Source: Cinnamomum chago
Lineage: Eukaryota > Streptophyta > Magnoliopsida > Laurales > Lauraceae
Length of the DNA stretch: 64,000 nucleotides
NCBI GenBank assembly: GCA_038049695.1
Contig: CP142458.1
Location: forward strand, 60,979,501 to 61,043,500
Reading direction: 5' to 3'
Shown: piece by piece, positions 475-64,000 of the stretch
Numbering within the stretch: position 1 is the stretch's first letter
Layout: each line of letters starts with the position of its first letter
Position numbers and translations under genes: made by a program
Notes under the pieces: generated by a model
What the model was told of the DNA's origin: nothing
Seen by the model: the letters and a program-made list of their open reading frames with translations, nothing else
Databases searched by the model: none

Positions 475-521
475 TCGGTATTGCTACAAAATATCGTCGT
501 AGTATGGGCTGATATCGATTC

Positions 522-531
522 ATATCGGCCG
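522..531 (+). repeat. Third copy of the ATATCGGCCG arm word
   Basis: Identical to the arm at 445-454 and reverse-complementary to 418-427. It is followed by GG, giving overlapping CGGCCG and GGCCGG. Copy 30 (unit at 16566) has CGGTCGG here, losing the palindrome in that copy only. Confidence 0.9.
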
Positions 532-30900: not shown

Positions 30901-33900
30901 AACAATTTTTTTAAAAGTAGAAGATTAAAAAAAACCATTTTTCAACACAAAAAATCATGTTTATAAGTAGATCTAGCATGAAAGTGTGTAGATCTAAGTG
31001 AATAACACAACACAAACCCAAAAGTGACATGCCAATGATCGTTTCATTCATTTCTATGCTTTATCTAAAAATAAAAAATAAAAAAAATACATAATAGTAA
31101 AAATAAGGGAGTTAATTTGATTTTCTCTTACTAAATAAAATGATTTCTTCAAGAAATAGTGTTGGAAGTTGGAAATATATAAGAGAATGAGGGAAGAGGA
31201 GAAGAAAATGGAAAAATAGGAAAAAAGTTACAAAAAATCAAGGTTTTTGGACATTACTCCATCTCGGCCGATATTTTCAGAGATATCGGTAATATCGGCC
31301 GATCGGTAATATTTTACCGATTCGGTATTGCTACAAAATATCGTCGTGGTATGGGCTGATATCGATTCATATCGGCCGGTGAATATGAACGGGTATTAAT
31401 TGAGATTTTAAACCATAATCACACTTACTCATTAAGCTATTAGTATTTACTATTTAGTATCATAAATACTTCAACAATTTTTTTAAAAGTAGAAGATTAA
31501 AAAAAACCATTTTTCAACACAAAAAATCATGTTTATAAGTAGATCTAGCATGAAAGTGTGTAGATCTAAGTGAATAACACAACACAAACCCAAAAGTGAC
31601 ATGCCAATGATCGTTTCATTCATTTCTATGCTTTATCTAAAAATAAAAAATAAAAAAAACACATAATAGTAAAAATAGGGGAGTTAATTTGATTTTCTCT
31701 TACTAAATAAAATGATTTCTTCAAGAAATAGTGTTGGAAGTTGGAAATATATAAGAGAATGAGGGAAGAGGAGAAGAAAATGGAAAAAAAGGAAAAAAGT
31801 TACAAAAAATCAAGGTTTTTGGAATTACTCCATCTCGGCCGATATTTTCAGAGATATCGGTAATATCGGCCGATCGGTAATATTTTACCGATTCGGTATT
31901 GCTACAAAATATCGTCGTAGTATGGGCTGATATCGATTCATATCGGCCGGTGAATATGAACGGGTATTAATTGAGATTTTAAACCATAATCACACTTACT
32001 CATTAAGCTATTAGTATTTACTATTTAGTATCATAAATACTTCAACAATTTTTTTAAAAGTAGAAGATTAAAAAAAACCATTTTTCAACACAAAAAATCA
32101 TGTTTATAAGTAGATCTAGCATGAAAGTGTGTAGATCTAAGTGAATAACACAACACAAACCCAAAAGTGACATGCCAATGATCGTTTCATTCATTTCTAT
32201 GCTTTATCTAAAAATAAAAAATAAAAAAAACACATAATAGTAAAAATAAGGGAGTTAATTTGATTTTCTCTTACTAAATAAAATGATTTCTTCAAGAAAT
32301 AGTGTTGGAAGTTGGAAATATATAAGAGAATGAGGGAAGAGGAGAAGAAAATGGAAAAATAGGAAAAAAGTTACAAAAAATCAAGGTTTTTGGAATTACT
32401 CCATCTCGGCCGATATTTTCAGAGATATCGGTAATATCGGCCGATCGGTAATATTTTACCGATTCGGTATTGCTACAAAATATCGTCGTAGTATGGGCTG
32501 ATATCGATTCATATCGGCCGGTGAATATGAACGGGTATTAATTGAGATTTTAAACCATAATCACACTTACTCATTAAGCTATTAGTATTTACTATTTAGT
32601 ATCATAAATACTTCAACAATTTTTTTAAAAGTAGAAGATTAAAAAAAACCATTTTTCAACACAAAAAATCATGTTTATAAGTAGATCTAGCATGAAAGTG
32701 TGTAGATCTAAGTGAATAACACAACACATACCCAAAAGTGACATGCCAATGATCGTTTCATTCATTTCTATGCTTTATCTAAAAATAAAAAATAAAAAAA
32801 ATACATAATAGTAAAAATAAGGGAGTTAATTTGATTTTCTCTTACTAAATAAAATGATTTCTTCAAGAAATAGTGTTGGAAGTTGGAAATATATAAGAGA
32901 ATGAGGGAAGAGGAGAAGAAAATGGAAAAATAGGAAAAAAGTTACAAAAAATCAAGGTTTTTGGACATTACTCCATCTCGGCCGATATTTTCAGAGATAT
33001 CGGTAATATCGGCCGATCGGTAATATTTTACCGATTCGGTATTGCTACAAAATATCGTCGTAGTATGGGCTGATATCGATTCATATCGGCCGGTGAATAT
33101 GAACGGGTATTAATTGAGATTTTAAACCATAATCACACTTACTCATTAAGCTATTAGTATTTACTATTTAGTATCATAAATACTTCAACAATTTTTTTAA
33201 AAGTAGAAGATTAAAAAAAACCATATTTCAACACAAAAAATCATGTTTATAAGTAGATCTAGCATGAAAGTGTGTAGATCTAAGTGAATAACACAACACA
33301 AACCCAAAAGTGACATGCCAATGATCGTTTCATTCATTTCTATGCTTTATCTAAAAATAAAAAATAAAAAAAACACATAATAGTAAAAATAGGGGAGTTA
33401 ATTTGATTTTCTCTTACTAAATAAAATGATTTCTTCAAGAAATAGTGTTGGAAGTTGGAAATATATAAGAGAATGAGGGAAGAGGAGAAGAAAATGGAAA
33501 AAAAGGAAAAAAGTTACAAAAAATCAAGGTTTTTGGAATTACTCCATCTCGGCCGATATTTTCAGAGATATCGGTAATATCGGCCGATCGGTAATATTTT
33601 ACCGATTCGGTATTGCTACAAAATATCGTCGTAGTATGGGCTGATATCGATTCATATCGGCCGGTGAATATGAACGGGTATTAATTGAGATTTTAAACCA
33701 TAATCACACTTACTCATTAAGCTATTAGTATTTACTATTTAGTATCATAAATACTTCAACAATTTTTTTAAAAGTAGAAGATTAAAAAAAACCATTTTTC
33801 AACACAAAAAATCATGTTTATAAGTAGATCTAGCATGAAAGTGTGTAGATCTAAGTGAATAACACAACACAAACCCAAAAGTGACATGCCAATGATCGTT

Positions 33901-36900
33901 TCATTCATTTCTATGCTTTATCTAAAAATAAAAAATAAAAAAAACACATAATAGTAAAAATAAGGGAGTTAATTTGATTTTCTCTTACTAAATAAAATGA
34001 TTTCTTCAAGAAATAGTGTTGGAAGTTGGAAATATATAAGAGAATGAGGGAAGAGGAGAAGAAAATGGAAAAATAGGAAAAAAGTTACAAAAAATCAAGG
34101 TTTTTGGAATTACTCCATCTCGGCCGATATTTTCAGAGATATCGGTAATATCGGCCGATCGGTAATATTTTACCGATTCGGTATTGCTACAAAATATCGT
34201 CGTAGTATGGGCTGATATCGATTCATATCGGCCGGTGAATATGAACGGGTATTAATTGAGATTTTAAACCATAATCACACTTACTCATTAAGCTATTAGT
34301 ATTTACTATTTAGTATCATAAATACTTCAACAATTTTTTTAAAAGTAGAATATTAAAAAAAACCATTTTTCAACACAAAAAATCATGTTTATAAGTAGAT
34401 CTAGCATGAAAGTGTGTAGATCTAAGTGAATAACACAACACAAACCCAAAAGTGACATGCCAATGATCGTTTCATTCATTTCTATGCTTTATCTAAAAAT
34501 AAAAAATAAAAAAAATACATAATAGTAAAAATAAGGGAGTTAATTTGATTTTCTCTTACTAAATAAAATGATTTCTTCAAGAAATAGTGTTGGAAGTTGG
34601 AAATATATAAGAGAATGAGGGAAGAGGAGAAGAAAATGGAAAAATAGGAAAAAAGTTACAAAAAATCAAGGTTTTTGGACATTACTCCATCTCGGCCGAT
34701 ATTTTCAGAGATATCGGTAATATCGGCCGATCGGTAATATTTTACCGATTCGGTATTGCTACAAAATATCGTCGTAGTATGGGCTGATATCGATTCATAT
34801 CGGCCGGTGAATATGAACGGGTATTAATTGAGATTTTAAACCATAATCACACTTACTCATTAAGCTATTAGTATTTACTATTTAGTATCATAAATACTTC
34901 AACAATTTTTTTAAAAGTAGAAGATTAAAAAAAACCATTTTTCAACACAAAAAATCATGTTTATAAGTAGATCTAGCATGAAAGTGTGTAGATCTAAGTG
35001 AATAACACAACACAAACCCAAAAGTGACATGCCAATGATCGTTTCATTCATTTCTATGCTTTATCTAAAAATAAAAAATAAAAAAAACACATAATAGTAA
35101 AAATAGGGGAGTTAATTTGATTTTCTCTTACTAAATAAAATGATTTCTTCAAGAAATAGTGTTGGAAGTTGGAAATATATAAGAGAATGAGGGAAGAGGA
35201 GAAGAAAATGGAAAAAAAGGAAAAAAGTTACAAAAAATCAAGGTTTTTGGAATTACTCCATCTCGGCCGATATTTTCAGAGATATCGGTAATATCGGCCG
35301 ATCGGTAATATTTTACCGATTCGGTATTGCTACAAAATATCGTCGTAGTATGGGCTGATATCGATTCATATCGGCCGGTGAATATGAACGGGTATTAATT
35401 GAGATTTTAAACCATAATCACACTTACTCATTAAGCTATTAGTATTTACTATTTAGTATCATAAATACTTCAACAATTTTTTTAAAAGTAGAAGATTAAA
35501 AAAAACCATTTTTCAACACAAAAAATCATGTTTATAAGTAGATCTAGCATGAAAGTGTGTAGATCTAAGTGAATAACACAACACAAACCCAAAAGTGACA
35601 TGCCAATGATCGTTTCATTCATTTCTATGCTTTATCTAAAAATAAAAAATAAAAAAAATACATAATAGTAAAAATAAGGGAGTTAATTTGATTTTCTCTT
35701 ACTAAATAAAATGATTTCTTCAAGAAATAGTGTTGGAAGTTGGAAATATATAAGAGAATGAGGGAAGAGGAGAAGAAAATGGAAAAATAGGAAAAAAGTT
35801 ACAAAAAATCAAGGTTTTTGGACATTACTCCATCTCGGCCGATATTTTCAGAGATATCGGTAATATCGGCCGATCGGTAATATTTTACCGATTCGGTATT
35901 GCTACAAAATATCGTCGTGGTATGGGCTGATATCGATTCATATCGGCCGGTGAATATGAACGGGTATTAATTGAGATTTTAAACCATAATCACACTTACT
36001 CATTAAGCTATTAGTATTTACTATTTAGTATCATAAATACTTCAACAATTTTTTTAAAAGTAGAAGATTAAAAAAAACCATTTTTCAACACAAAAAATCA
36101 TGTTTATAAGTAGATCTAGCATGAAAGTGTGTAGATCTAAGTGAATAACACAACACAAACCCAAAAGTGACATGCCAATGATCGTTTCATTCATTTCTAT
36201 GCTTTATCTAAAAATAAAAAATAAAAAAAACACATAATAGTAAAAATAGGGGAGTTAATTTGATTTTCTCTTACTAAATAAAATGATTTCTTCAAGAAAT
36301 AGTGTTGGAAGTTGGAAATATATAAGAGAATGAGGGAAGAGGAGAAGAAAATGGAAAAAAAGGAAAAAAGTTACAAAAAATCAAGGTTTTTGGAATTACT
36401 CCATCTCGGCCGATATTTTCAGAGATATCGGTAATATCGGCCGATCGGTAATATTTTACCGATTCGGTATTGCTACAAAATATCGTCGTAGTATGGGCTG
36501 ATATCGATTCATATCGGCCGGTGAATATGAACGGGTATTAATTGAGATTTTAAACCATAATCACACTTACTCATTAAGCTATTAGTATTTACTATTTAGT
36601 ATCATAAATACTTCAACAATTTTTTTAAAAGTAGAAGATTAAAAAAAACCATTTTTCAACACAAAAAATCATGTTTATAAGTAGATCTAGCATGAAAGTG
36701 TGTAGATCTAAGTGAATAACACAACACAAACCCAAAAGTGACATGCCAATGATCGTTTCATTCATTTCTATGCTTTATCTAAAAATAAAAAATAAAAAAA
36801 ACACATAATAGTAAAAATAAGGGAGTTAATTTGATTTTCTCTTACTAAATAAAATGATTTCTTCAAGAAATAGTGTTGGAAGTTGGAAATATATAAGAGA

Positions 36901-37703
36901 ATGAGGGAAGAGGAGAAGAAAATGGAAAAATAGGAAAAAAGTTACAAAAAATCAAGGTTTTTGGAATTACTCCATCTCGGCCGATATTTTCAGAGATATC
37001 GGTAATATCGGCCGATCGGTAATATTTTACCGATTCGGTATTGCTACAAAATATCGTCGTAGTATGGGCTGATATCGATTCATATCGGCCGGTGAATATG
37101 AACGGGTATTAATTGAGATTTTAAACCATAATCACACTTACTCATTAAGCTATTAGTATTTACTATTTAGTATCATAAATACTTCAACAATTTTTTTAAA
37201 AGTAGAAGATTAAAAAAAACCATTTTTCAACACAAAAAATCATGTTTATAAGTAGATCTAGCATGAAAGTGTGTAGATCTAAGTGAATAACACAACACAT
37301 ACCCAAAAGTGACATGCCAATGATCGTTTCATTCATTTCTATGCTTTATCTAAAAATAAAAAATAAAAAAAATACATAATAGTAAAAATAAGGGAGTTAA
37401 TTTGATTTTCTCTTACTAAATAAAATGATTTCTTCAAGAAATAGTGTTGGAAGTTGGAAATATATAAGAGAATGAGGGAAGAGGAGAAGAAAATGGAAAA
37501 ATAGGAAAAAAGTTACAAAAAATCAAGGTTTTTGGACATTACTCCATCTCGGCCGATATTTTCAGAGATATCGGTAATATCGGCCGATCGGTAATATTTT
37601 ACCGATTCGGTATTGCTACAAAATATCGTCGTAGTATGGGCTGATATCGATTCATATCGGCCGGTGAATATGAACGGGTATTAATTGAGATTTTAAACCA
37701 TAA
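27990..37703 (+). repeat. Copies 50-66: VPSWQ zone, 5- and 8-unit blocks
   Basis: Starts: 27990, 28562, 29133, 29704, 30276, 30847, 31419, 31990, 32561, 33133, 33704, 34275, 34847, 35418, 35990, 36561, 37132. Types: VPSWQ, VPSWQSXP, VPSW, the last continuing QSX in the next zone. The order VPSWQ starts at 27990, 30847 and 35418, and its longer form VPSWQSX covers 30847-34846 and 35418-39417, 4571 bases apart. 169t (W) and 77t (X) first appear here. Copy 50 has a private g at 242 (gacataat). The zone has few private changes, which suggests recent spread. Confidence 0.9.
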
Positions 37704-40700
37704 TCACACTTACTCATTAAGCTATTAGTATTTACTATTTAGTATCATAAATACTTCAACAATTTTTTTAAAAGTAGAAGATTAAAAAAAACCATATTTC
37801 AACACAAAAAATCATGTTTATAAGTAGATCTAGCATGAAAGTGTGTAGATCTAAGTGAATAACACAACACAAACCCAAAAGTGACATGCCAATGATCGTT
37901 TCATTCATTTCTATGCTTTATCTAAAAATAAAAAATAAAAAAAACACATAATAGTAAAAATAGGGGAGTTAATTTGATTTTCTCTTACTAAATAAAATGA
38001 TTTCTTCAAGAAATAGTGTTGGAAGTTGGAAATATATAAGAGAATGAGGGAAGAGGAGAAGAAAATGGAAAAAAAGGAAAAAAGTTACAAAAAATCAAGG
38101 TTTTTGGAATTACTCCATCTCGGCCGATATTTTCAGAGATATCGGTAATATCGGCCGATCGGTAATATTTTACCGATTCGGTATTGCTACAAAATATCGT
38201 CGTAGTATGGGCTGATATCGATTCATATCGGCCGGTGAATATGAACGGGTATTAATTGAGATTTTAAACCATAATCACACTTACTCATTAAGCTATTAGT
38301 ATTTACTATTTAGTATCATAAATACTTCAACAATTTTTTTAAAAGTAGAAGATTAAAAAAAACCATTTTTCAACACAAAAAATCATGTTTATAAGTAGAT
38401 CTAGCATGAAAGTGTGTAGATCTAAGTGAATAACACAACACAAACCCAAAAGTGACATGCCAATGATCGTTTCATTCATTTCTATGCTTTATCTAAAAAT
38501 AAAAAATAAAAAAAACACATAATAGTAAAAATAAGGGAGTTAATTTGATTTTCTCTTACTAAATAAAATGATTTCTTCAAGAAATAGTGTTGGAAGTTGG
38601 AAATATATAAGAGAATGAGGGAAGAGGAGAAGAAAATGGAAAAATAGGAAAAAAGTTACAAAAAATCAAGGTTTTTGGAATTACTCCATCTCGGCCGATA
38701 TTTTCAGAGATATCGGTAATATCGGCCGATCGGTAATATTTTACCGATTCGGTATTGCTACAAAATATCGTCGTAGTATGGGCTGATATCGATTCATATC
38801 GGCCGGTGAATATGAACGGGTATTAATTGAGATTTTAAACCATAATCACACTTACTCATTAAGCTATTAGTATTTACTATTTAGTATCATAAATACTTCA
38901 ACAATTTTTTTAAAAGTAGAATATTAAAAAAAACCATTTTTCAACACAAAAAATCATGTTTATAAGTAGATCTAGCATGAAAGTGTGTAGATCTAAGTGA
39001 ATAACACAACACAAACCCAAAAGTGACATGCCAATGATCGTTTCATTCATTTCTATGCTTTATCTAAAAATAAAAAATAAAAAAAATACATAATAGTAAA
39101 AATAAGGGAGTTAATTTGATTTTCTCTTACTAAATAAAATGATTTCTTCAAGAAATAGTGTTGGAAGTTGGAAATATATAAGAGAATGAGGGAAGAGGAG
39201 AAGAAAATGGAAAAATAGGAAAAAAGTTACAAAAAATCAAGGTTTTTGGACATTACTCCATCTCGGCCGATATTTTCAGAGATATCGGTAATATCGGCCG
39301 ATCGGTAATATTTTACCGATTCGGTATTGCTACAAAATATCGTCGTAGTATGGGCTGATATCGATTCATATCGGCCGGTGAATATGAACGGGTATTAATT
39401 GAGATTTTAAACCATAATCACACTTACTCATTAAGCTATTAGTATTTACTATTTAGTATCATAAATACTTCAACAATTTTTTTAAAAGTAGAAGATTAAA
39501 AAAAACCATATTTCAACACAAAAAATCATGTTTATAAGTAGATCTAGCATGAAAGTGTGTAGATCTAAGTGAATAACACAACACAAACCCAAAAGTGACA
39601 TGCCAATGATCGTTTCATTCATTTCTATGCTTTATCTAAAAATAAAAAATAAAAAAAACACATAATAGTAAAAATAAGGGAGTTAATTTGATTTTCTCTT
39701 ACTAAATAAAATGATTTCTTCAAGAAATAGTGTTGGAAGTTGGAAATATATAAGAGAATGAGGGAAGAGGAGAAGAAAATGGAAAAAAAGGAAAAAAGTT
39801 ACAAAAAATCAAGGTTTTTGGAATTACTCCATCTCGGCCGATATTTTCAGAGATATCGGTAATATCGGCCGATCGGTAATATTTTACCGATTCGGTATTG
39901 CTACAAAATATCGTCGTAGTATGGGCTGATATCGATTCATATCGGCCGGTGAATATGAACGGGTATTAATTGAGATTTTAAACCATAATCACACTTACTC
40001 ATTAAGCTATTAGTATTTACTATTTAGTATCATAAATACTTCAACAATTTTTTTAAAAGTAGAAGATTAAAAAAAACCATTTTTCAACACAAAAAATCAT
40101 GTTTATAAGTAGATCTAGCATGAAAGTGTGTAGATCTAAGTGAATAACACAACACATACCCAAAAGTGACATGCCAATGATCGTTTCATTCATTTCTATG
40201 CTTTATCTAAAAATAAAAAATAAAAAAAATACATAATAGTAAAAATAAGGGAGTTAATTTGATTTTCTCTTACTAAATAAAATGATTTCTTCAAGAAATA
40301 GTGTTGGAAGTTGGAAATATATAAGAGAATGAGGGAAGAGGAGAAGAAAATGGAAAAATAGGAAAAAAGTTACAAAAAATCAAGGTTTTTGGACATTACT
40401 CCATCTCGGCCGATATTTTCAGAGATATCGGTAATATCGGCCGATCGGTAATATTTTACCGATTCGGTATTGCTACAAAATATCGTCGTAGTATGGGCTG
40501 ATATCGATTCATATCGGCCGGTGAATATGAACGGGTATTAATTGAGATTTTAAACCATAATCACACTTACTCATTAAGCTATTAGTATTTACTATTTAGT
40601 ATCATAAATACTTCAACAATTTTTTTAAAAGTAGAAGATTAAAAAAAACCATATTTCAACACAAAAAATCATGTTTATAAGTAGATCTAGCATGAAAGTG

Positions 40701-43700
40701 TGTAGATCTAAGTGAATAACACAACACAAACCCAAAAGTGACATGCCAATGATCGTTTCATTCATTTCTATGCTTTATCTAAAAATAAAAAATAAAAAAA
40801 ACACATAATAGTAAAAATAGGGGAGTTAATTTGATTTTCTCTTACTAAATAAAATGATTTCTTCAAGAAATAGTGTTGGAAGTTGGAAATATATAAGAGA
40901 ATGAGGGAAGAGGAGAAGAAAATGGAAAAAAAGGAAAAAAGTTACAAAAAATCAAGGTTTTTGGAATTACTCCATCTCGGCCGATATTTTCAGAGATATC
41001 GGTAATATCGGCCGATCGGTAATATTTTACCGATTCGGTATTGCTACAAAATATCGTCGTAGTATGGGCTGATATCGATTCATATCGGCCGGTGAATATG
41101 AACGGGTATTAATTGAGATTTTAAACCATAATCACACTTACTCATTAAGCTATTAGTATTTACTATTTAGTATCATAAATACTTCAACAATTTTTTTAAA
41201 AGTAGAAGATTAAAAAAAACCATTTTTCAACACAAAAAATCATGTTTATAAGTAGATCTAGCATGAAAGTGTGTAGATCTAAGTGAATAACACAACACAA
41301 ACCCAAAAGTGACATGCCAATGATCGTTTCATTCATTTCTATGCTTTATCTAAAAATAAAAAATAAAAAAAACACATAATAGTAAAAATAAGGGAGTTAA
41401 TTTGATTTTCTCTTACTAAATAAAATGATTTCTTCAAGAAATAGTGTTGGAAGTTGGAAATATATAAGAGAATGAGGGAAGAGGAGAAGAAAATGGAAAA
41501 ATAGGAAAAAAGTTACAAAAAATCAAGGTTTTTGGAATTACTCCATCTCGGCCGATATTTTCAGAGATATCGGTAATATCGGCCGATCGGTAATATTTTA
41601 CCGATTCGGTATTGCTACAAAATATCGTCGTAGTATGGGCTGATATCGATTCATATCGGCCGGTGAATATGAACGGGTATTAATTGAGATTTTAAACCAT
41701 AATCACACTTACTCATTAAGCTATTAGTATTTACTATTTAGTATCATAAATACTTCAACAATTTTTTTAAAAGTAGAATATTAAAAAAAACCATTTTTCA
41801 ACACAAAAAATCATGTTTATAAGTAGATCTAGCATGAAAGTGTGTAGATCTAAGTGAATAACACAACACAAACCCAAAAGTGACATGCCAATGATCGTTT
41901 CATTCATTTCTATGCTTTATCTAAAAATAAAAAATAAAAAAAATACATAATAGTAAAAATAAGGGAGTTAATTTGATTTTCTCTTACTAAATAAAATGAT
42001 TTCTTCAAGAAATAGTGTTGGAAGTTGGAAATATATAAGAGAATGAGGGAAGAGGAGAAGAAAATGGAAAAATAGGAAAAAAGTTACAAAAAATCAAGGT
42101 TTTTGGACATTACTCCATCTCGGCCGATATTTTCAGAGATATCGGTAATATCGGCCGATCGGTAATATTTTACCGATTCGGTATTGCTACAAAATATCGT
42201 CGTAGTATGGGCTGATATCGATTCATATCGGCCGGTGAATATGAACGGGTATTAATTGAGATTTTAAACCATAATCACACTTACTCATTAAGCTATTAGT
42301 ATTTACTATTTAGTATCATAAATACTTCAACAATTTTTTTAAAAGTAGAAGATTAAAAAAAACCATATTTCAACACAAAAAATCATGTTTATAAGTAGAT
42401 CTAGCATGAAAGTGTGTAGATCTAAGTGAATAACACAACACAAACCCAAAAGTGACATGCCAATGATCGTTTCATTCATTTCTATGCTTTATCTAAAAAT
42501 AAAAAATAAAAAAAACACATAATAGTAAAAATAAGGGAGTTAATTTGATTTTCTCTTACTAAATAAAATGATTTCTTCAAGAAATAGTGTTGGAAGTTGG
42601 AAATATATAAGAGAATGAGGGAAGAGGAGAAGAAAATGGAAAAAAAGGAAAAAAGTTACAAAAAATCAAGGTTTTTGGAATTACTCCATCTCGGCCGATA
42701 TTTTCAGAGATATCGGTAATATCGGCCGATCGGTAATATTTTACCGATTCGGTATTGCTACAAAATATCGTCGTAGTATGGGCTGATATCGATTCATATC
42801 GGCCGGTGAATATGAACGGGTATTAATTGAGATTTTAAACCATAATCACACTTACTCATTAAGCTATTAGTATTTACTATTTAGTATCATAAATACTTCA
42901 ACAATTTTTTTAAAAGTAGAAGATTAAAAAAAACCATTTTTCAACACAAAAAATCATGTTTATAAGTAGATCTAGCATGAAAGTGTGTAGATCTAAGTGA
43001 ATAACACAACACAAACCCAAAAGTGACATGCCAATGATCGTTTCATTCATTTCTATGCTTTATCTAAAAATAAAAAATAAAAAAAACACATAATAGTAAA
43101 AATAAGGGAGTTAATTTGATTTTCTCTTACTAAATAAAATGATTTCTTCAAGAAATAGTGTTGGAAGTTGGAAATATATAAGAGAATGAGGGAAGAGGAG
43201 AAGAAAATGGAAAAATAGGAAAAAAGTTACAAAAAATCAAGGTTTTTGGAATTACTCCATCTCGGCCGATATTTTCAGAGATATCGGTAATATCGGCCGA
43301 TCGGTAATATTTTACCGATTCGGTATTGCTACAAAATATCGTCGTAGTATGGGCTGATATCGATTCATATCGGCCGGTGAATATGAACGGGTATTAATTG
43401 AGATTTTAAACCATAATCACACTTACTCATTAAGCTATTAGTATTTACTATTTAGTATCATAAATACTTCAACAATTTTTTTAAAAGTAGAAGATTAAAA
43501 AAAACCATATTTCAACACAAAAAATCATGTTTATAAGTAGATCTAGCATGAAAGTGTGTAGATCTAAGTGAATAACACAACACAAACCCAAAAGTGACAT
43601 GCCAATGATCGTTTCATTCATTTCTATGCTTTATCTAAAAATAAAAAATAAAAAAAACACATAATAGTAAAAATAAGGGAGTTAATTTGATTTTCTCTTA

Positions 43701-45700
43701 CTAAATAAAATGATTTCTTCAAGAAATAGTGTTGGAAGTTGGAAATATATAAGAGAATGAGGGAAGAGGAGAAGAAAATGGAAAAAAAGGAAAAAAGTTA
43801 CAAAAAATCAAGGTTTTTGGAATTACTCCATCTCGGCCGATATTTTCAGAGATATCGGTAATATCGGCCGATCGGTAATATTTTACCGATTCGGTATTGC
43901 TACAAAATATCGTCGTAGTATGGGCTGATATCGATTCATATCGGCCGGTGAATATGAACGGGTATTAATTGAGATTTTAAACCATAATCACACTTACTCA
44001 TTAAGCTATTAGTATTTACTATTTAGTATCATAAATACTTCAACAATTTTTTTAAAAGTAGAAGATTAAAAAAAACCATTTTTCAACACAAAAAATCATG
44101 TTTATAAGTAGATCTAGCATGAAAGTGTGTAGATCTAAGTGAATAACACAACACAAACCCAAAAGTGACATGCCAATGATCGTTTCATTCATTTCTATGC
44201 TTTATCTAAAAATAAAAAATAAAAAAAACACATAATAGTAAAAATAAGGGAGTTAATTTGATTTTCTCTTACTAAATAAAATGATTTCTTCAAGAAATAG
44301 TGTTGGAAGTTGGAAATATATAAGAGAATGAGGGAAGAGGAGAAGAAAATGGAAAAATAGGAAAAAAGTTACAAAAAATCAAGGTTTTTGGAATTACTCC
44401 ATCTCGGCCGATATTTTCAGAGATATCGGTAATATCGGCCGATCGGTAATATTTTACCGATTCGGTATTGCTACAAAATATCGTCGTAGTATGGGCTGAT
44501 ATCGATTCATATCGGCCGGTGAATATGAACGGGTATTAATTGAGATTTTAAACCATAATCACACTTACTCATTAAGCTATTAGTATTTACTATTTAGTAT
44601 CATAAATACTTCAACAATTTTTTTAAAAGTAGAAGATTAAAAAAAACCATATTTCAACACAAAAAATCATGTTTATAAGTAAATCTAGCATGAAAGTGTG
44701 TAGATCTAAGTGAATAACACAACACAAACCCAAAAGTGACATGCCAATGATCGTTTCATTCATTTCTATGCTTTATCTAAAAATAAAAAATAAAAAAAAC
44801 ACATAATAGTAAAAATAGGGGAGTTAATTTGATTTTCTCTTACTAAATAAAATGATTTCTTCAAGAAATAGTGTTGGAAGTTGGAAATATATAAGAGAAT
44901 GAGGGAAGAGGAGAAGAAAATGGAAAAAAAGGAAAAAAGTTACAAAAAATCAAGGTTTTTGGAATTACTCCATCTCGGCCGATATTTTCAGAGATATCGG
45001 TAATATCGGCCGATCGGTAATATTTTACCGATTCGGTATTGCTACAAAATATCGTCGTAGTATGGGCTGATATCGATTCATATCGGCCGGTGAATATGAA
45101 CGGGTATTAATTGAGATTTTAAACCATAATCACACTTACTCATTAAGCTATTAGTATTTACTATTTAGTATCATAAATACTTCAACAATTTTTTTAAAAG
45201 TAGAAGATTAAAAAAAACCATTTTTCAACACAAAAAATCATGTTTATAAGTAGATCTAGCATGAAAGTGTGTAGATCTAAGTGAATAACACAACACAAAC
45301 CCAAAAGTGACATGCCAATGATCGTTTCATTCATTTCTATGCTTTATCTAAAAATAAAAAATAAAAAAAACACATAATAGTAAAAATAAGGGAGTTAATT
45401 TGATTTTCTCTTACTAAATAAAATGATTTCTTCAAGAAATAGTGTTGGAAGTTGGAAATATATAAGAGAATGAGGGAAGAGGAGAAGAAAATGGAAAAAT
45501 AGGAAAAAAGTTACAAAAAATCAAGGTTTTTGGAATTACTCCATCTCGGCCGATATTTTCAGAGATATCGGTAATATCGGCCGATCGGTAATATTTTACC
45601 GATTCGGTATTGCTACAAAATATCGTCGTAGTATGGGCTGATATCGATTCATATCGGCCGGTGAATATGAACGGGTATTAATTGAGATTTTAAACCATAA
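37704..45700 (+). repeat. Copies 67-80: 14-unit block QSXTWQSXTSTSRS
   Basis: Starts: 37704, 38275, 38846, 39418, 39989, 40561, 41132, 41703, 42275, 42846, 43417, 43988, 44559, 45130. Length 7997 bases. Its first ten units match copies 81-90 type for type and length for length (572-bp units at places 3, 5 and 8 in both). Inside it QSXT occurs twice, and T-S is present twice in a row (42275-44558). From 42275 to 46842 S alternates with a 93a-type copy (T S T S R S Q S), giving a local two-unit period of 1142 bp. Confidence 0.9.
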
Positions 45701-48700
45701 TCACACTTACTCATTAAGCTATTAGTATTTACTATTTAGTATCATAAATACTTCAACAATTTTTTTAAAAGTAGAAGATTAAAAAAAACCATATTTCAAC
45801 ACAAAAAATCATGTTTATAAGTAGATCTAGCATGAAAGTGTGTAGATCTAAGTGAATAACACAACACAAACCCAAAAGTGACATGCCAATGATCGTTTCA
45901 TTCATTTCTATGCTTTATCTAAAAATAAAAAATAAAAAAAACACATAATAGTAAAAATAGGGGAGTTAATTTGATTTTCTCTTACTAAATAAAATGATTT
46001 CTTCAAGAAATAGTGTTGGAAGTTGGAAATATATAAGAGAATGAGGGAAGAGGAGAAGAAAATGGAAAAAAAGGAAAAAAGTTACAAAAAATCAAGGTTT
46101 TTGGAATTACTCCATCTCGGCCGATATTTTCAGAGATATCGGTAATATCGGCCGATCGGTAATATTTTACCGATTCGGTATTGCTACAAAATATCGTCGT
46201 AGTATGGGCTGATATCGATTCATATCGGCCGGTGAATATGAACGGGTATTAATTGAGATTTTAAACCATAATCACACTTACTCATTAAGCTATTAGTATT
46301 TACTATTTAGTATCATAAATACTTCAACAATTTTTTTAAAAGTAGAAGATTAAAAAAAACCATTTTTCAACACAAAAAATCATGTTTATAAGTAGATCTA
46401 GCATGAAAGTGTGTAGATCTAAGTGAATAACACAACACAAACCCAAAAGTGACATGCCAATGATCGTTTCATTCATTTCTATGCTTTATCTAAAAATAAA
46501 AAATAAAAAAAACACATAATAGTAAAAATAAGGGAGTTAATTTGATTTTCTCTTACTAAATAAAATGATTTCTTCAAGAAATAGTGTTGGAAGTTGGAAA
46601 TATATAAGAGAATGAGGGAAGAGGAGAAGAAAATGGAAAAATAGGAAAAAAGTTACAAAAAATCAAGGTTTTTGGAATTACTCCATCTCGGCCGATATTT
46701 TCAGAGATATCGGTAATATCGGCCGATCGGTAATATTTTACCGATTCGGTATTGCTACAAAATATCGTCGTAGTATGGGCTGATATCGATTCATATCGGC
46801 CGGTGAATATGAACGGGTATTAATTGAGATTTTAAACCATAATCACACTTACTCATTAAGCTATTAGTATTTACTATTTAGTATCATAAATACTTCAACA
46901 ATTTTTTTAAAAGTAGAATATTAAAAAAAACCATTTTTCAACACAAAAAATCATGTTTATAAGTAGATCTAGCATGAAAGTGTGTAGATCTAAGTGAATA
47001 ACACAACACAAACCCAAAAGTGACATGCCAATGATCGTTTCATTCATTTCTATGCTTTATCTAAAAATAAAAAATAAAAAAAATACATAATAGTAAAAAT
47101 AAGGGAGTTAATTTGATTTTCTCTTACTAAATAAAATGATTTCTTCAAGAAATAGTGTTGGAAGTTGGAAATATATAAGAGAATGAGGGAAGAGGAGAAG
47201 AAAATGGAAAAATAGGAAAAAAGTTACAAAAAATCAAGGTTTTTGGACATTACTCCATCTCGGCCGATATTTTCAGAGATATCGGTAATATCGGCCGATC
47301 GGTAATATTTTACCGATTCGGTATTGCTACAAAATATCGTCGTAGTATGGGCTGATATCGATTCATATCGGCCGGTGAATATGAACGGGTATTAATTGAG
47401 ATTTTAAACCATAATCACACTTACTCATTAAGCTATTAGTATTTACTATTTAGTATCATAAATACTTCAACAATTTTTTTAAAAGTAGAAGATTAAAAAA
47501 AACCATATTTCAACACAAAAAATCATGTTTATAAGTAGATCTAGCATGAAAGTGTGTAGATCTAAGTGAATAACACAACACAAACCCAAAAGTGACATGC
47601 CAATGATCGTTTCATTCATTTCTATGCTTTATCTAAAAATAAAAAATAAAAAAAACACATAATAGTAAAAATAAGGGAGTTAATTTGATTTTCTCTTACT
47701 AAATAAAATGATTTCTTCAAGAAATAGTGTTGGAAGTTGGAAATATATAAGAGAATGAGGGAAGAGGAGAAGAAAATGGAAAAAAAGGAAAAAAGTTACA
47801 AAAAATCAAGGTTTTTGGAATTACTCCATCTCGGCCGATATTTTCAGAGATATCGGTAATATCGGCCGATCGGTAATATTTTACCGATTCGGTATTGCTA
47901 CAAAATATCGTCGTAGTATGGGCTGATATCGATTCATATCGGCCGGTGAATATGAACGGGTATTAATTGAGATTTTAAACCATAATCACACTTACTCATT
48001 AAGCTATTAGTATTTACTATTTAGTATCATAAATACTTCAACAATTTTTTTAAAAGTAGAAGATTAAAAAAAACCATTTTTCAACACAAAAAATCATGTT
48101 TATAAGTAGATCTAGCATGAAAGTGTGTAGATCTAAGTGAATAACACAACACATACCCAAAAGTGACATGCCAATGATCGTTTCATTCATTTCTATGCTT
48201 TATCTAAAAATAAAAAATAAAAAAAATACATAATAGTAAAAATAAGGGAGTTAATTTGATTTTCTCTTACTAAATAAAATGATTTCTTCAAGAAATAGTG
48301 TTGGAAGTTGGAAATATATAAGAGAATGAGGGAAGAGGAGAAGAAAATGGAAAAATAGGAAAAAAGTTACAAAAAATCAAGGTTTTTGGACATTACTCCA
48401 TCTCGGCCGATATTTTCAGAGATATCGGTAATATCGGCCGATCGGTAATATTTTACCGATTCGGTATTGCTACAAAATATCGTCGTAGTATGGGCTGATA
48501 TCGATTCATATCGGCCGGTGAATATGAACGGGTATTAATTGAGATTTTAAACCATAATCACACTTACTCATTAAGCTATTAGTATTTACTATTTAGTATC
48601 ATAAATACTTCAACAATTTTTTTAAAAGTAGAAGATTAAAAAAAACCATATTTCAACACAAAAAATCATGTTTATAAGTAGATCTAGCATGAAAGTGTGT

Positions 48701-51700
48701 AGATCTAAGTGAATAACACAACACAAACCCAAAAGTGACATGCCAATGATCGTTTCATTCATTTCTATGCTTTATCTAAAAATAAAAAATAAAAAAAACA
48801 CATAATAGTAAAAATAGGGGAGTTAATTTGATTTTCTCTTACTAAATAAAATGATTTCTTCAAGAAATAGTGTTGGAAGTTGGAAATATATAAGAGAATG
48901 AGGGAAGAGGAGAAGAAAATGGAAAAAAAGGAAAAAAGTTACAAAAAATCAAGGTTTTTGGAATTACTCCATCTCGGCCGATATTTTCAGAGATATCGGT
49001 AATATCGGCCGATCGGTAATATTTTACCGATTCGGTATTGCTACAAAATATCGTCGTAGTATGGGCTGATATCGATTCATATCGGCCGGTGAATATGAAC
49101 GGGTATTAATTGAGATTTTAAACCATAATCACACTTACTCATTAAGCTATTAGTATTTACTATTTAGTATCATAAATACTTCAACAATTTTTTTAAAAGT
49201 AGAAGATTAAAAAAAACCATTTTTCAACACAAAAAATCATGTTTATAAGTAGATCTAGCATGAAAGTGTGTAGATCTAAGTGAATAACACAACACAAACC
49301 CAAAAGTGACATGCCAATGATCGTTTCATTCATTTCTATGCTTTATCTAAAAATAAAAAATAAAAAAAACACATAATAGTAAAAATAAGGGAGTTAATTT
49401 GATTTTCTCTTACTAAATAAAATGATTTCTTCAAGAAATAGTGTTGGAAGTTGGAAATATATAAGAGAATGAGGGAAGAGGAGAAGAAAATGGAAAAATA
49501 GGAAAAAAGTTACAAAAAATCAAGGTTTTTGGAATTACTCCATCTCGGCCGATATTTTCAGAGATATCGGTAATATCGGCCGATCGGTAATATTTTACCG
49601 ATTCGGTATTGCTACAAAATATCGTCGTAGTATGGGCTGATATCGATTCATATCGGCCGGTGAATATGAACGGGTATTAATTGAGATTTTAAACCATAAT
49701 CACACTTACTCATTAAGCTATTAGTATTTACTATTTAGTATCATAAATACTTCAACAATTTTTTTAAAAGTAGAATATTAAAAAAAACCATTTTTCAACA
49801 CAAAAAATCATGTTTATAAGTAGATCTAGCATGAAAGTGTGTAGATCTAAGTGAATAACACAACACAAACCCAAAAGTGACATGCCAATGATCGTTTCAT
49901 TCATTTCTATGCTTTATCTAAAAATAAAAAATAAAAAAAATACATAATAGTAAAAATAAGGGAGTTAATTTGATTTTCTCTTACTAAATAAAATGATTTC
50001 TTCAAGAAATAGTGTTGGAAGTTGGAAATATATAAGAGAATGAGGGAAGAGGAGAAGAAAATGGAAAAATAGGAAAAAAGTTACAAAAAATCAAGGTTTT
50101 TGGACATTACTCCATCTCGGCCGATATTTTCAGAGATATCGGTAATATCGGCCGATCGGTAATATTTTACCGATTCGGTATTGCTACAAAATATCGTCGT
50201 AGTATGGGCTGATATCGATTCATATCGGCCGGTGAATATGAACGGGTATTAATTGAGATTTTAAACCATAATCACACTTACTCATTAAGCTATTAGTATT
50301 TACTATTTAGTATCATAAATACTTCAACAATTTTTTTAAAAGTAGAAGATTAAAAAAAACCATATTTCAACACAAAAAATCATGTTTATAAGTAGATCTA
50401 GCATGAAAGTGTGTAGATCTAAGTGAATAACACAACACAAACCCAAAAGTGACATGCCAATGATCGTTTCATTCATTTCTATGCTTTATCTAAAAATAAA
50501 AAATAAAAAAAACACATAATAGTAAAAATAAGGGAGTTAATTTGATTTTCTCTTACTAAATAAAATGATTTCTTCAAGAAATAGTGTTGGAAGTTGGAAA
50601 TATATAAGAGAATGAGGGAAGAGGAGAAGAAAATGGAAAAAAAGGAAAAAAGTTACAAAAAATCAAGGTTTTTGGAATTACTCCATCTCGGCCGATATTT
50701 TCAGAGATATCGGTAATATCGGCCGATCGGTAATATTTTACCGATTCGGTATTGCTACAAAATATCGTCGTAGTATGGGCTGATATCGATTCATATCGGC
50801 CGGTGAATATGAACGGGTATTAATTGAGATTTTAAACCATAATCACACTTACTCATTAAGCTATTAGTATTTACTATTTAGTATCATAAATACTTCAACA
50901 ATTTTTTTAAAAGTAGAAGATTAAAAAAAACCATTTTTCAACACAAAAAATCATGTTTATAAGTAGATCTAGCATGAAAGTGTGTAGATCTAAGTGAATA
51001 ACACAACACAAACCCAAAAGTGACATGCCAATGATCGTTTCATTCATTTCTATGCTTTATCTAAAAATAAAAAATAAAAAAAACACATAATAGTAAAAAT
51101 AAGGGAGTTAATTTGATTTTCTCTTACTAAATAAAATGATTTCTTCAAGAAATAGTGTTGGAAGTTGGAAATATATAAGAGAATGAGGGAAGAGGAGAAG
51201 AAAATGGAAAAATAGGAAAAAAGTTACAAAAAATCAAGGTTTTTGGAATTACTCCATCTCGGCCGATATTTTCAGAGATATCGGTAATATCGGCCGATCG
51301 GTAATATTTTACCGATTCGGTATTGCTACAAAATATCGTCGTAGTATGGGCTGATATCGATTCATATCGGCCGGTGAATATGAACGGGTATTAATTGAGA
51401 TTTTAAACCATAATCACACTTACTCATTAAGCTATTAGTATTTACTATTTAGTATCATAAATACTTCAACAATTTTTTTAAAAGTAGAAGATTAAAAAAA
51501 ACCATATTTCAACACAAAAAATCATGTTTATAAGTAAATCTAGCATGAAAGTGTGTAGATCTAAGTGAATAACACAACACAAACCCAAAAGTGACATGCC
51601 AATGATCGTTTCATTCATTTCTATGCTTTATCTAAAAATAAAAAATAAAAAAAACACATAATAGTAAAAATAGGGGAGTTAATTTGATTTTCTCTTACTA

Positions 51701-52555
51701 AATAAAATGATTTCTTCAAGAAATAGTGTTGGAAGTTGGAAATATATAAGAGAATGAGGGAAGAGGAGAAGAAAATGGAAAAAAAGGAAAAAAGTTACAA
51801 AAAATCAAGGTTTTTGGAATTACTCCATCTCGGCCGATATTTTCAGAGATATCGGTAATATCGGCCGATCGGTAATATTTTACCGATTCGGTATTGCTAC
51901 AAAATATCGTCGTAGTATGGGCTGATATCGATTCATATCGGCCGGTGAATATGAACGGGTATTAATTGAGATTTTAAACCATAATCACACTTACTCATTA
52001 AGCTATTAGTATTTACTATTTAGTATCATAAATACTTCAACAATTTTTTTAAAAGTAGAAGATTAAAAAAAACCATTTTTCAACACAAAAAATCATGTTT
52101 ATAAGTAGATCTAGCATGAAAGTGTGTAGATCTAAGTGAATAACACAACACAAACCCAAAAGTGACATGCCAATGATCGTTTCATTCATTTCTATGCTTT
52201 ATCTAAAAATAAAAAATAAAAAAAACACATAATAGTAAAAATAAGGGAGTTAATTTGATTTTCTCTTACTAAATAAAATGATTTCTTCAAGAAATAGTGT
52301 TGGAAGTTGGAAATATATAAGAGAATGAGGGAAGAGGAGAAGAAAATGGAAAAATAGGAAAAAAGTTACAAAAAATCAAGGTTTTTGGAATTACTCCATC
52401 TCGGCCGATATTTTCAGAGATATCGGTAATATCGGCCGATCGGTAATATTTTACCGATTCGGTATTGCTACAAAATATCGTCGTAGTATGGGCTGATATC
52501 GATTCATATCGGCCGGTGAATATGAACGGGTATTAATTGAGATTTTAAACCATAA
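45701..52555 (+). repeat. Copies 81-92: 12-unit block QSXTWQSXTSRS
   Basis: Starts: 45701, 46272, 46843, 47415, 47986, 48558, 49129, 49700, 50272, 50843, 51414, 51985. Length 6855 bases. It repeats copies 67-80 in order except that one T-S pair (two units, 1142 bases) is absent. The simplest account is a tandem duplication of the whole segment followed by gain of a T-S pair in the left copy or its loss in the right copy. I saw almost no private bases that would show long independent ageing. Confidence 0.9.
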
Positions 52556-54839
52556 TCACACTTACTCATTAAGCTATTAGTATTTACTATTTAGTATCAT
52601 AAATACTTCAACAATTTTTTTAAAAGTAGAAGATTAAAAAAAACCATATTTCAACACAAAAAATCATGTTTATAAGTAAATCTAGCATGAAAGTGTGTAG
52701 ATCTAAGTGAATAACACAACACAAACCCAAAAGTGACATGCCAATGATCGTTTCATTCATTTCTATGCTTTATCTAAAAATAAAAAATAAAAAAAACACA
52801 TAATAGTAAAAATAGGGGAGTTAATTTGATTTTCTCTTACTAAATAAAATGATTTCTTCAAGAAATAGTGTTGGAAGTTGGAAATATATAAGAGAATGAG
52901 GGAAGAGGAGAAGAAAATGGAAAAATAGGAAAAAAGTTACAAAAAATCAAGGTTTTTGGAATTACTCCATCTCGGCCGATATTTTCAGAGATATCGGTAA
53001 TATCGGCCGATCGGTAATATTTTACCGATTCGGTATTGCTACAAAATATCGTCGTAGTATGGGCTGATATCGATTCATATCGGCCGGTGAATATGAACGG
53101 GTATTAATTGAGATTTTAAACCATAATCACACTTACTCATTAAGCTATTAGTATTTACTATTTAGTATCATAAATACTTCAACAATTTTTTTAAAAGTAG
53201 AAGATTAAAAAAAACCATATTTCAACACAAAAAATCATGTTTATAAGTAGATCTAGCATGAAAGTGTGTAGATCTAAGTGAATAACACAACACAAACCCA
53301 AAAGTGACATGCCAATGATCGTTTCATTCATTTCTATGCTTTATCTAAAAATAAAAAATAAAAAAAACACATAATAGTAAAAATAGGGGAGTTAATTTGA
53401 TTTTCTCTTACTAAATAAAATGATTTCTTCAAGAAATAGTGTTGGAAGTTGGAAATATATAAGAGAATGAGGGAAGAGGAGAAGAAAATGGAAAAATAGG
53501 AAAAAAGTTACAAAAAATCAAGGTTTTTGGAATTACTCCATCTCGGCCGATATTTTCAGAGATATCGGTAATATCGGCCGATCGGTAATATTTTACCGAT
53601 TCGGTATTGCTACAAAATATCGTCGTAGTATGGGCTGATATCGATTCATATCGGCCGGTGAATATGAACGGGTATTAATTGAGATTTTAAACCATAATCA
53701 CACTTACTCATTAAGCTATTAGTATTTACTATTTAGTATCATAAATACTTCAACAATTTTTTTAAAAGTAGAAGATTAAAAAAAACCATATTTCAACACA
53801 AAAAATCATGTTTATAAGTAAATCTAGCATGAAAGTGTGTAGATCTAAGTGAATAACACAACACAAACCCAAAAGTGACATGCCAATGATCGTTTCATTC
53901 ATTTCTATGCTTTATCTAAAAATAAAAAATAAAAAAAACACATAATAGTAAAAATAGGGGAGTTAATTTGATTTTCTCTTACTAAATAAAATGATTTCTT
54001 CAAGAAATAGTGTTGGAAGTTGGAAATATATAAGAGAATGAGGGAAGAGGAGAAGAAAATGGAAAAATAGGAAAAAAGTTACAAAAAATCAAGGTTTTTG
54101 GAATTACTCCATCTCGGCCGATATTTTCAGAGATATCGGTAATATCGGCCGATCGGTAATATTTTACCGATTCGGTATTGCTACAAAATATCGTCGTAGT
54201 ATGGGCTGATATCGATTCATATCGGCCGGTGAATATGAACGGGTATTAATTGAGATTTTAAACCATAATCACACTTACTCATTAAGCTATTAGTATTTAC
54301 TATTTAGTATCATAAATACTTCAACAATTTTTTTAAAAGTAGAAGATTAAAAAAAACCATATTTCAACACAAAAAATCATGTTTATAAGTAAATCTAGCA
54401 TGAAAGTGTGTAGATCTAAGTGAATAACACAACACAAACCCAAAAGTGACATGCCAATGATCGTTTCATTCATTTCTATGCTTTATCTAAAAATAAAAAA
54501 TAAAAAAAACACATAATAGTAAAAATAGGGGAGTTAATTTGATTTTCTCTTACTAAATAAAATGATTTCTTCAAGAAATAGTGTTGGAAGTTGGAAATAT
54601 ATAAGAGAATGAGGGAAGAGGAGAAGAAAATGGAAAAAAAGGAAAAAAGTTACAAAAAATCAAGGTTTTTGGAATTACTCCATCTCGGCCGATATTTTCA
54701 GAGATATCGGTAATATCGGCCGATCGGTAATATTTTACCGATTCGGTATTGCTACAAAATATCGTCGTAGTATGGGCTGATATCGATTCATATCGGCCGG
54801 TGAATATGAATGGGTATTAATTGAGATTTTAAACCATAA
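52556..54839 (+). repeat. Copies 93-96: R/Q units, three with recombinant right part
   Basis: Starts: 52556, 53127, 53698, 54269. Copies 93, 94 and 95 carry the P/Q/R left-hand markers (93a, 242c, 260g; 124a in 93 and 95) but have 371t, which elsewhere never goes with 260g. A switch between 260 and 371 to an S-type right part explains this, and three such copies in a row suggest one event that was then multiplied. Copy 96 is an ordinary R with gaatggg, losing the CpG at 543. Confidence 0.88.
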
Positions 54840-57800
54840 TCACACTTACTCATTAAGCTATTAGTATTTACTATTTAGTATCATAAATACTTCAACAATT
54901 TTTTTAAAAGTAGAAGATTAAAAAAAACCATTTTTCAACACAAAAAATCATGTTTATAAGTAGATCTAGCATGAAAGTGTGTAGATCTAAGTGAATAACA
55001 CAACACAAACCCAAAAGTGACATGCCAATGATCGTTTCATTCATTTCTATGCTTTATCTAAAAATAAAAAATAAAAAAAACACATAATAATAAAAATAAG
55101 GGAGTTAATTTGATTTTCTCTTACTAAATAAAATGATTTCTTCAAGAAATAGTGTTGGAAGTTGGAAATATATAAGAGAATGAGGGAAGAGGAGAAGAAA
55201 ATGGAAAAATAGGAAAAAAGTTACAAAAAATCAAGGTTTTTGGAATTACTCCATCTCGGCCGATATTTTCAGAGATATCGGTAATATCGGCCGATCGGTA
55301 ATATTTTACCGATTCGGTATTGCTACAAAATATCGTCGTAGTATGGGCTGATATCGATTCATATCGGCCGGTGAATATGAACGGGTATTAATTGAGATTT
55401 TAAACCATAATCACACTTACTCATTAAGCTATTAGTATTTACTATTTAGTATCATAAATACTTCAACAATTTTTTTAAAAGTAGAATATTAAAAAAAACC
55501 ATTTTTCAACACAAAAAATCATGTTTATAAGTAGATCTAGCATGAAAGTGTGTAGATCTAAGTGAATAACACAACACATACCCAAAAGTGACATGCCAAT
55601 GATCGTTTCATTCATTTCTATGCTTTATCTAAAAATAAAAAATAAAAAAAATACATAATAGTAAAAATAAGGGAGTTAATTTGATTTTCTCTTACTAAAT
55701 AAAATGATTTCTTCAAGAAATAGTGTTGGAAGTTGGAAATATATAAGAGAATGAGGGAAGAGGAGAAGAAAATGGAAAAATAGGAAAAAAGTTACAAAAA
55801 ATCAAGGTTTTTGGACATTACTCCATCTCGGCCGATATTTTCAGAGATATCGGTAATATCGGCCGATCGGTAATATTTTACCGATTCGGTATTGCTACAA
55901 AATATCGTCGTAGTATGGGCTGATATCGATTCATATCGGCCGGTGAATATGAACGGGTATTAATTGAGATTTTAAACCATAATCACACTTACTCATTAAG
56001 CTATTAGTATTTACTATTTAGTATCATAAATACTTCAACAATTTTTTTAAAAGTAGAAGATTAAAAAAAACCATATTTCAACACAAAAAATCATGTTTAT
56101 AAGTAGATCTAGCATGAAAGTGTGTAGATCTAAGTGAATAACACAACACAAACCCAAAAGTGACATGCCAATGATCGTTTCATTCATTTCTATGCTTTAT
56201 CTAAAAATAAAAAATAAAAAAAACACATAATAGTAAAAATAAGGGAGTTAATTTGATTTTCTCTTACTAAATAAAATGATTTCTTCAAGAAATAGTGTTG
56301 GAAGTTGGAAATATATAAGAGAATGAGGGAAGAGGAGAAGAAAATGGAAAAAAAGGAAAAAAGTTACAAAAAATCAAGGTTTTTGGAATTACTCCATCTC
56401 GGCCGATATTTTCAGAGATATCGGTAATATCGGCCGATCGGTAATATTTTACCGATTCGGTATTGCTACAAAATATCGTCGTAGTATGGGCTGATATCGA
56501 TTCATATCGGCCGGTGAATATGAACGGGTATTAATTGAGATTTTAAACCATAATCACACTTACTCATTAAGCTATTAGTATTTACTATTTAGTATCATAA
56601 ATACTTCAACAATTTTTTTAAAAGTAGAAGATTAAAAAAAACCATTTTTCAACACAAAAAATCATGTTTATAAGTAGATCTAGCATGAAAGTGTGAAGAT
56701 CTAAGTGAATAACACAACACAAACCCAAAAGTGACATGCCAATGATCGTTTCATTCATTTCTATGCTTTATCTAAAAATAAAAAATAAAAAAAATACATA
56801 ATAGTAAAAATAAGGGAGTTAATTTGATTTTCTCTTACTAAATAAAATGATTTCTTCAAGAAATAGTGTTGGAAGTTGGAAATATATAAGAGAATGAGGG
56901 AAGAGGAGAAGAAAATGGAAAAATAGGAAAAAAGTTACAAAAAATCAAGGTTTTTGGACATTACTCCATCTCGGCCGATATTTTCAGAGATATCGGTAAT
57001 ATCGGCCGATCGGTAATATTTTACCGATTCGGTATTGCTACAAAATATCGTCGTAGTATGGGCTGATATCGATTCATATCGGCCGGTCAATATGAACGGG
57101 TATTAATTGAGATTTTAAACCATAATCACACTTACTCATTAAGCTATTAGTATTTACTATTTAGTATCATAAATACTTCAACAATTTTTTTAAAAGTAGA
57201 AGATTAAAAAAAACCATTTTTCAACACAAAAAATCATGTTTATAAGTAGATCTAGCATGAAAGTGTGTAGATCTAAGTGAATAACACAACACAAACCCAA
57301 AAGTGACATGCCAATGATCGTTTCATTCATTTCTATGCTTTATCTAAAAATAAAAAATAAAAAAAACACATAATAGTAAAAATAAGGGAGTTAATTTGAT
57401 TTTCTCTTACTAAATAAAATGATTTCTTCAAGAAATAGTGTTGGAAGTTGGAAATATATAAGAGAATGAGGGAAGAGGAGAAGAAAATGGAAAAAAAGGA
57501 AAAAAGTTACAAAAAATCAAGGTTTTTGGAATTACCCCATCACGGCCGATATTTTCAGAGATATCGGTAATATCGGCCGATCGGTAATATTTTACCGATT
57601 CGGTATTGCTACAAAATATCGTCGTAGTATGGGCTGATATCGATTCATATCGGCCGGTGAATATGAACGGGTATTAATTGAGATTTTAAACCATAATCAC
57701 ACTTACTCATTAAGCTATTAGTATTTACTATTTAGTATCATAAATACTTCAACAATTTTTTTAAAAGTAGAAGATTAAAAAAAACCATTTTTCAACACAA

Positions 57801-63978: not shown

Positions 63979-64000
63979 TCACACTTACTCATTAAGCTAT
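63979..64000 (+). repeat. First 22 bases of copy 113, cut by the window end
   Basis: It matches monomer positions 1-22 exactly, so the array continues past the window. Confidence 0.97.

What the first reader, a model, noticed from the sequence alone, without database searches (positions are those of the whole stretch)
37704..52555. A 14-unit segment is followed directly by a 12-unit copy of itself
Copies 67-80 read QSXTWQSXTSTSRS and copies 81-92 read QSXTWQSXTSRS. Ten consecutive units match in type and in 571/572 length, and the whole difference is one T-S pair. A duplication of about 8 kb with a two-unit slip explains this more simply than chance order of eight or so types. It shows homogenisation here acting on multi-kilobase segments, not only on single units.
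Basis: seen in the sequence. Interest (0 to 1): 0.75.

Follow-up and report, generated by a model that had tools for sequence, protein, structure and literature searches.

The report
Block duplication inside a satellite DNA array
A repetitive stretch of DNA built from near-identical 571-base units carries what looks like a recent copy of an 8,000-base, 14-unit block right next to its original, a clear but ordinary snapshot of how satellite DNA grows and stays uniform.

Summary
The window is one head-to-tail array of 571/572-bp units: 112 anchor hits, 111 spacings. The 111 units are 99.35% alike on average, with 45 distinct sequences. Units u66-u79 (37699-45695) read FAGCIFAGCACABA; u80-u91 (45696-52550) read FAGCIFAGCABA. 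The second segment equals the first minus one 1,142-bp stretch, with no mismatch. The 6,002-bp match at offset 7997 is the longest exact direct repeat in the window.

The duplication is better supported than the 'two-unit slip': without a slip the twelve units differ by only two bases, both in u90. It is one of at least four tandem block duplications (5, 8, 5, 14 units). Neighbouring units are identical in 2 of 110 cases, far below what one-unit turnover gives in simulation. Block-wise unequal exchange, or out-of-register break-induced replication, explains it: known satellite/HOR evolution, in an unidentified eukaryote (probably a plant; a guess). An assembly duplication cannot be excluded without reads.

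The parts
1..64000 (+). Head-to-tail satellite array of 571/572-bp units filling the whole window; no array end is seen in the window
   Evidence: 112 anchor hits, 85 spacings of 571 and 26 of 572; 42 variable columns of 573 in 111 units
37699..45695 (+). Copy 1: 14 units u66-u79, FAGCIFAGCACABA, 7,997 bp (match extends left to 37538 and right to 45823)
45696..52550 (+). Copy 2: 12 units u80-u91, FAGCIFAGCABA, 6,855 bp (match extends left to 45535 and right to 52678)
45535..45823 (+). 289-bp interval of identity in which the duplication junction lies if this is a tandem duplication
   Evidence: start of copy 2 at offset 7997 and end of copy 1 at offset 6855
42109..44681 (+). Stretch within which the 1,142 bp absent from copy 2 lie; it holds the perfect C-A-C-A (u74-u77), so the exact place cannot be told
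   Evidence: common prefix 5,841 and common suffix 2,445
51409..51979 (+). u90 (type B): the single unit whose two bases (51537 and 51673) decide between slip and conversion
36932..43013 (+). 5-unit tandem duplication IFAGC IFAGC (exact match 3,225 bp at offset 2857); most of it is shared by both copies of the 14-unit block
29873..39509 (+). 8-unit tandem duplication u53-60 / u61-68 (offset 4571, one mismatch at 30368)
27512..33944 (+). 5-unit tandem duplication u49-53 / u54-58 (offset 2857, one mismatch at 28231, a private state of u49)
28557..54263 (+). u50-u94: 45 successive units without any private variant

Best explanation
This is a eukaryotic satellite array in which a block of about 14 units (about 8 kb) was recently duplicated in tandem and in register. 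The likely route is unequal exchange between misaligned sister chromatids, or fork collapse with break-induced replication restarting 14 units behind. A second small event, either gain or loss of one C-A pair or conversion of u90, made the copies differ. Shown: the exact adjacent copies, the offset of exactly 14 units, an older 5-unit duplication shared by both copies, and the scarcity of identical neighbours. Inferred: the recombination pathway, the nature and order of the small event, that the organism is a eukaryote, and that the assembly is faithful.
For: Copy 2 equals copy 1 minus 1,142 bp with no mismatch. The matched stretch is longer than one full period (37538-45823 = 8,286 bp against 7,997), as a tandem duplication requires. 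Three further blocks show the same geometry at offsets of 5, 8 and 5 units. By permutation of the whole window, identity is in excess at lags 5, 8, 13 and 14 (P below 0.0001, 0.0001, 0.0034 and 0.0003). Identical neighbours are 2 of 110 overall (expected 5.0, P 0.11) and 0 of 44 in u50-u94 (expected 5.9, P 0.0008; that stretch was chosen after seeing the data). One-unit-only forward simulations give median 31-55 identical neighbours. No private variant in 45 successive units (P 0.0002).
Against: First-order Markov nulls give a run of 10 units in 17% and the adjacent block score in 2.6%. The lack of identical neighbours is not significant against a plain shuffle of the whole window (P 0.11). 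The block simulations (up to 15 units) include the observed 2 identical neighbours in only 2 of 6 settings, those with the highest mutation rate, with medians of 5 and 8, and have fewer unit types (14-31) than the 45 observed. Exact copies are also what an assembly duplication would look like. The slip rests on two bases of one unit.
Confidence: 0.82

Rival explanations
1. Assembly artefact: the assembler walked the same ~8-kb path twice, and one pass lost or gained a C-A pair.
For: The copies carry no substitution if the slip is allowed, and u50-u94 has no private variant at all, so reads would be hard to place there.
Against: The 8-unit and left 5-unit blocks have the same geometry but carry one difference each, so natural block duplication is likely here. 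A plain assembly copy should not differ by two units or two bases.
Confidence: 0.1
2. A variant of the best explanation, not an alternative to the duplication: no slip occurred; 12 units match at constant offset 7997 and u90 was changed from type C to type B by gene conversion from a nearby B unit.
For: The ungapped alignment shows 2 mismatches, both in u90 and 136 bp apart, giving an existing haplotype. Reshuffling inside units is suggested by 24 of 171 site pairs with all four combinations, but 14 of these 24 rest on a combination seen in one unit only, and recurrent mutation could add some.
Against: At the same offset the next units u92, u93 and u94 differ by 1, 2 and 2 (haplotypes), so copy 2 would stop two units short. 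The slip model pairs the last B and A exactly, but it too ends at u92 (2 differences).
Confidence: 0.3
3. No block duplication: the order of a few abundant types repeats because neighbours follow a simple adjacency rule.
For: Markov-1 sequences give runs of 10 or more in 17% of trials.
Against: I know of no mechanism for such a rule other than earlier block duplications. The adjacent gapped match arises in only 2.6%, and the match is exact at base level over 6,002 bp.
Confidence: 0.04

Closest known systems
Higher-order repeats (HORs) of satellite DNA such as human alpha satellite, explained by unequal exchange (Smith 1976) or break-induced replication (Rice 2020), both as reported in the review PMC8997354 (passages seen; the two originals not seen)
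   Same: Blocks of distinct monomers duplicated together, nested structure
   Different: No fixed block iterated many times in this window; block lengths vary (2, 5, 8, 14 units) and each block occurs about twice, so this looks like HOR formation in progress rather than an established HOR
Rye subtelomeric satellite pSc250 (571-bp monomer; PMC4857426, passages seen)
   Same: Monomer length 571 bp; that paper reports multimeric units of 2 to 8 monomers for pSc200 and pSc250
   Different: The published 42-nt pSc250 probe (PMC4440213, passages seen) has no match in the window with up to 3 mismatches, and its local alignment to two units scores no better than shuffled probes

Membership tests
Satellite DNA with higher-order (multi-monomer block) organisation | Long head-to-tail array of one monomer | tested here: met
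   112 anchors at 571/572 spacing over 64 kb
Satellite DNA with higher-order (multi-monomer block) organisation | Blocks of several distinct monomers more alike to each other than their monomers are | tested here: met
   12 of 12 paired units identical (slip allowed) against 3.72 differences per average unit pair
Satellite DNA with higher-order (multi-monomer block) organisation | One block iterated many times as a regular HOR | tested here: not met
   Within this window blocks of 5, 8, 5 and 14 units occur about twice each at different offsets; the rest of the array was not available
Rye pSc250 | Monomer length 571 bp | tested here: met
   length of pSc250 from PMC4857426
Rye pSc250 | Sequence similarity to pSc250 | tested here: not met
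   Published probe absent with up to 3 mismatches and no better than shuffled; the full monomer was not available, so only 42 nt were tested
Centromeric satellite | Association with CENH3/CENP-A chromatin or the primary constriction | not testable with these tools
   No chromosome position or chromatin data; a CENP-B-box-like pattern (recalled) was not found in one unit with up to 1 mismatch

The most novel reading that the evidence does not exclude
In this part of the array new copies arise almost only as blocks of two or more units, hardly ever as single units, and the duplications have advanced along the array from left to right (5u, 8u, 5u, 14u, with 1, 1, 0 and 0 differences between copies). 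That would be a directional duplication front, as repeated fork restart would give. The four counts are too small to show a direction.
Probability: 0.1. Interest if true: 0.55.

Novelty: new member of a known kind. Interest (0 to 1): 0.3.

Why it matters
The array catches block turnover at an early stage. The copies are so alike that the length, register and junction interval (289 bp) of the last duplication can be read directly, and the scarcity of identical neighbours argues against one-unit slippage. It is a clean worked example for testing unequal exchange against break-induced replication, not a new mechanism.

Tried and rejected
Organism and family: no whole genome is held for the window. 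One unit had no match in plasmids; the phage and E. coli collections were not searched. A 43-base core had no exact match in viral contigs, a 33-base core none in genome contigs, which hold bacteria and archaea only. No Rfam match in the 2,857 bases tested. Six fragments of the unit were found in no paper. Rye pSc250 was considered for its 571-bp length and rejected on its published probe. Ensete glaucum was listed for '571 bp'; of its two occurrences the one shown is part of a genome-size number, and the satellite described there has a 134-bp monomer (12 of 28 places shown). Coding: the longest stop-free stretch in a unit trimer is 55 codons on + and 81 on -; rejected.

A left-to-right age gradient was considered. 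My first hand-chosen blocks gave falling divergence (4.38, 2.19, 1.05, 0.44, 0 and 0 per kb, then 0 differences for the 14/12-unit pair), but the differences sit mostly in the last unit of each block. When the left 5-unit and the 8-unit blocks are re-registered, one difference each remains; the 4-unit blocks match over only part of their length (exact 2,021 of 2,285 bases for the best). I do not claim the gradient, and keep it only as the bold reading. MAFFT put the 1,142-bp gap at the end with 2 mismatches rather than inside; that is the no-slip variant, kept. The junction of the 14-unit event and the place of the slip fall in the same part of the unit (289 bp each), which may only reflect the spacing of informative sites.

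Simulation limits: 60 runs per setting, 12 settings, a fixed array of 300 units; longest runs taken from the first 20 runs of each setting. The first tandem-block test used only 25 shuffles per null and was repeated with 3,000 and a shortcut (first units must match).

Passages of four papers were seen; the rest only as listings. A plant-centromere paper sought by a recalled DOI is not held.

Full report
What is there. The whole 64-kb window is a single head-to-tail array. A 24-base anchor occurs 112 times with spacings of 571 (85) and 572 (26). The 111 complete units align over 573 columns, of which 42 vary and 19 have a minor state in at least two units. Mean identity between units is 99.35%. 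There are 45 distinct unit sequences, or 35 types by the 19 informative columns. One unit examined is 29% G+C, with a stretch of 38-48% G+C holding cggccgat motifs in its last third, and no long reading frame. Five units' length (2,857 bases) gave no Rfam match.

The observation. With letters for informative haplotypes, u66-u79 read F A G C I F A G C A C A B A and u80-u91 read F A G C I F A G C A B A. With the slip allowed, 12 of 12 paired units are identical, against 4.6% of all pairs and 18.5% of pairs within these 26 units. The longest exact direct repeat of the window is 37538-43539 against 45535-51536 at offset 7997. A second exact match, 43251-45823 against 50106-52678, lies at offset 6855. 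Copy 2 is copy 1 minus exactly 1,142 bp.

Is it more than chance. In 2,000 permutations of the 111 units the longest run at one offset never exceeded 4, and in 5,000 permutations of u50-u96 never 7 (observed 10). In 3,000 permutations the adjacent, gapped block score never exceeded 4 (observed 10). Among 4,278 non-overlapping pairs of 10-unit stretches only this one has no difference. First-order Markov chains of unit types are a harsher null, since they carry the neighbour preferences left by older duplications. They give a run of at least 10 in 17% and the adjacent block score in 77 of 3,000, 2.6%. The score asks that the first units of the two blocks match, in the observed and the simulated arrays alike.

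Duplication against slip. The match covers 8,286 bases from 37538 to 45823, 289 more than one period, as expected of a tandem duplication with its junction inside 45535-45823. The two-unit slip is less secure. At constant offset 7997 the twelve units of copy 2 differ from copy 1 by two bases only, both in u90, which is type B where u76 is type C. Gain of a C-A pair in copy 1, its loss in copy 2, exchange between two chromatids that already differed, or conversion of u90 by a B unit all fit. I favour the indel slightly because it also pairs the following B and A exactly. Both versions end at u92, and the sequence does not settle it.

The surroundings. The event is not alone. Tandem blocks of 5 units (u49-53 / u54-58, one difference, a private state of u49), 8 units (u53-60 / u61-68, one difference) and 5 units (u65-69 / u70-74, exact) have the same geometry. 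The order FAGC-I-FAGC made by the right 5-unit duplication is present in both copies of the 14-unit block, so I infer that the 14-unit event is younger. From u50 to u94 no unit carries a private variant, while 27 private states lie in 19 units elsewhere in the window; the permutation probability of such a gap is 0.0002. Identity is in excess at lags 5, 8, 13 and 14. Neighbours are identical in 2 of 110 cases (expected 5.0 by permutation, P 0.11) and in 0 of 44 in u50-u94 (expected 5.9, P 0.0008; stretch chosen after the fact).

Simulation. Simple forward simulations with one-unit duplication give medians of 31-55 identical neighbours. Blocks of 1-4 units give medians of 14-35, with 5-95% ranges above 2 in all three settings. 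Blocks of 1-15 or 2-15 include 2 only at the highest mutation setting (medians 8 and 5; longest runs of median 11 and 12, observed 10) and have fewer types than observed.

Reshuffling inside units is suggested: 24 of 171 pairs of informative sites show all four combinations, 10 of them with every combination in at least two units. u92-u94 look like hybrids of B or F with A.

Mechanism. Unequal exchange between misaligned sister chromatids and out-of-register break-induced replication both produce in-register tandem copies of a block; both models are described for higher-order repeats in PMC8997354 (passages seen). The window cannot choose between them. As a rough bound from my own arithmetic, no substitution in 6,855 aligned bases (slip allowed) limits divergence to about 4.4e-4 (95%). 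With a recalled plant rate of about 7e-9 per site and generation this means less than about 31,000 generations, if the organism is a plant and conversion has not erased differences.

Identity. The species is unknown; that it is a eukaryote is inferred from the kind of array and from the lack of a held prokaryote genome, and 'plant' is a guess. Monomer length recalls rye pSc250 (571 bp; PMC4857426, passages seen), but the published pSc250 probe (PMC4440213, passages seen) is absent with up to 3 mismatches and aligns no better than shuffled probes. Only 42 nt were tested, so a distant relation is not excluded. No match was found in plasmids, viral contigs or genome contigs at the settings used.

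Verdict. The kind of event is well known, so interest is modest.

Noticed in passing
window 28557-54263 (u50-u94): 45 successive units without a private variant, with private variants on both sides: a young core inside the array.
   Followed up: yes
window 52551-54263 (u92-u94): Three successive units that look like hybrids: left part of type B or F, right part of type A (no A at column 376), just behind copy 2.
   Followed up: partly
window 21701-28556 (u38-u49): A looser 4-unit rhythm D H x y, three times, with the differences in the third and fourth unit.
   Followed up: partly
window 41127-41697 (u72), about bases 415-545 of the unit: A stretch richer in G+C (38-48%) with several self-complementary CGGCCGAT/GATATCG motifs in an otherwise AT-rich unit; CpG in the unit is not depleted (15 against 12.1 expected).
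   Followed up: no
window 567-13132 (u1-u22): The left end of the window holds the most varied units: 19 distinct among 22, mean 4.72 differences per pair.
   Followed up: no
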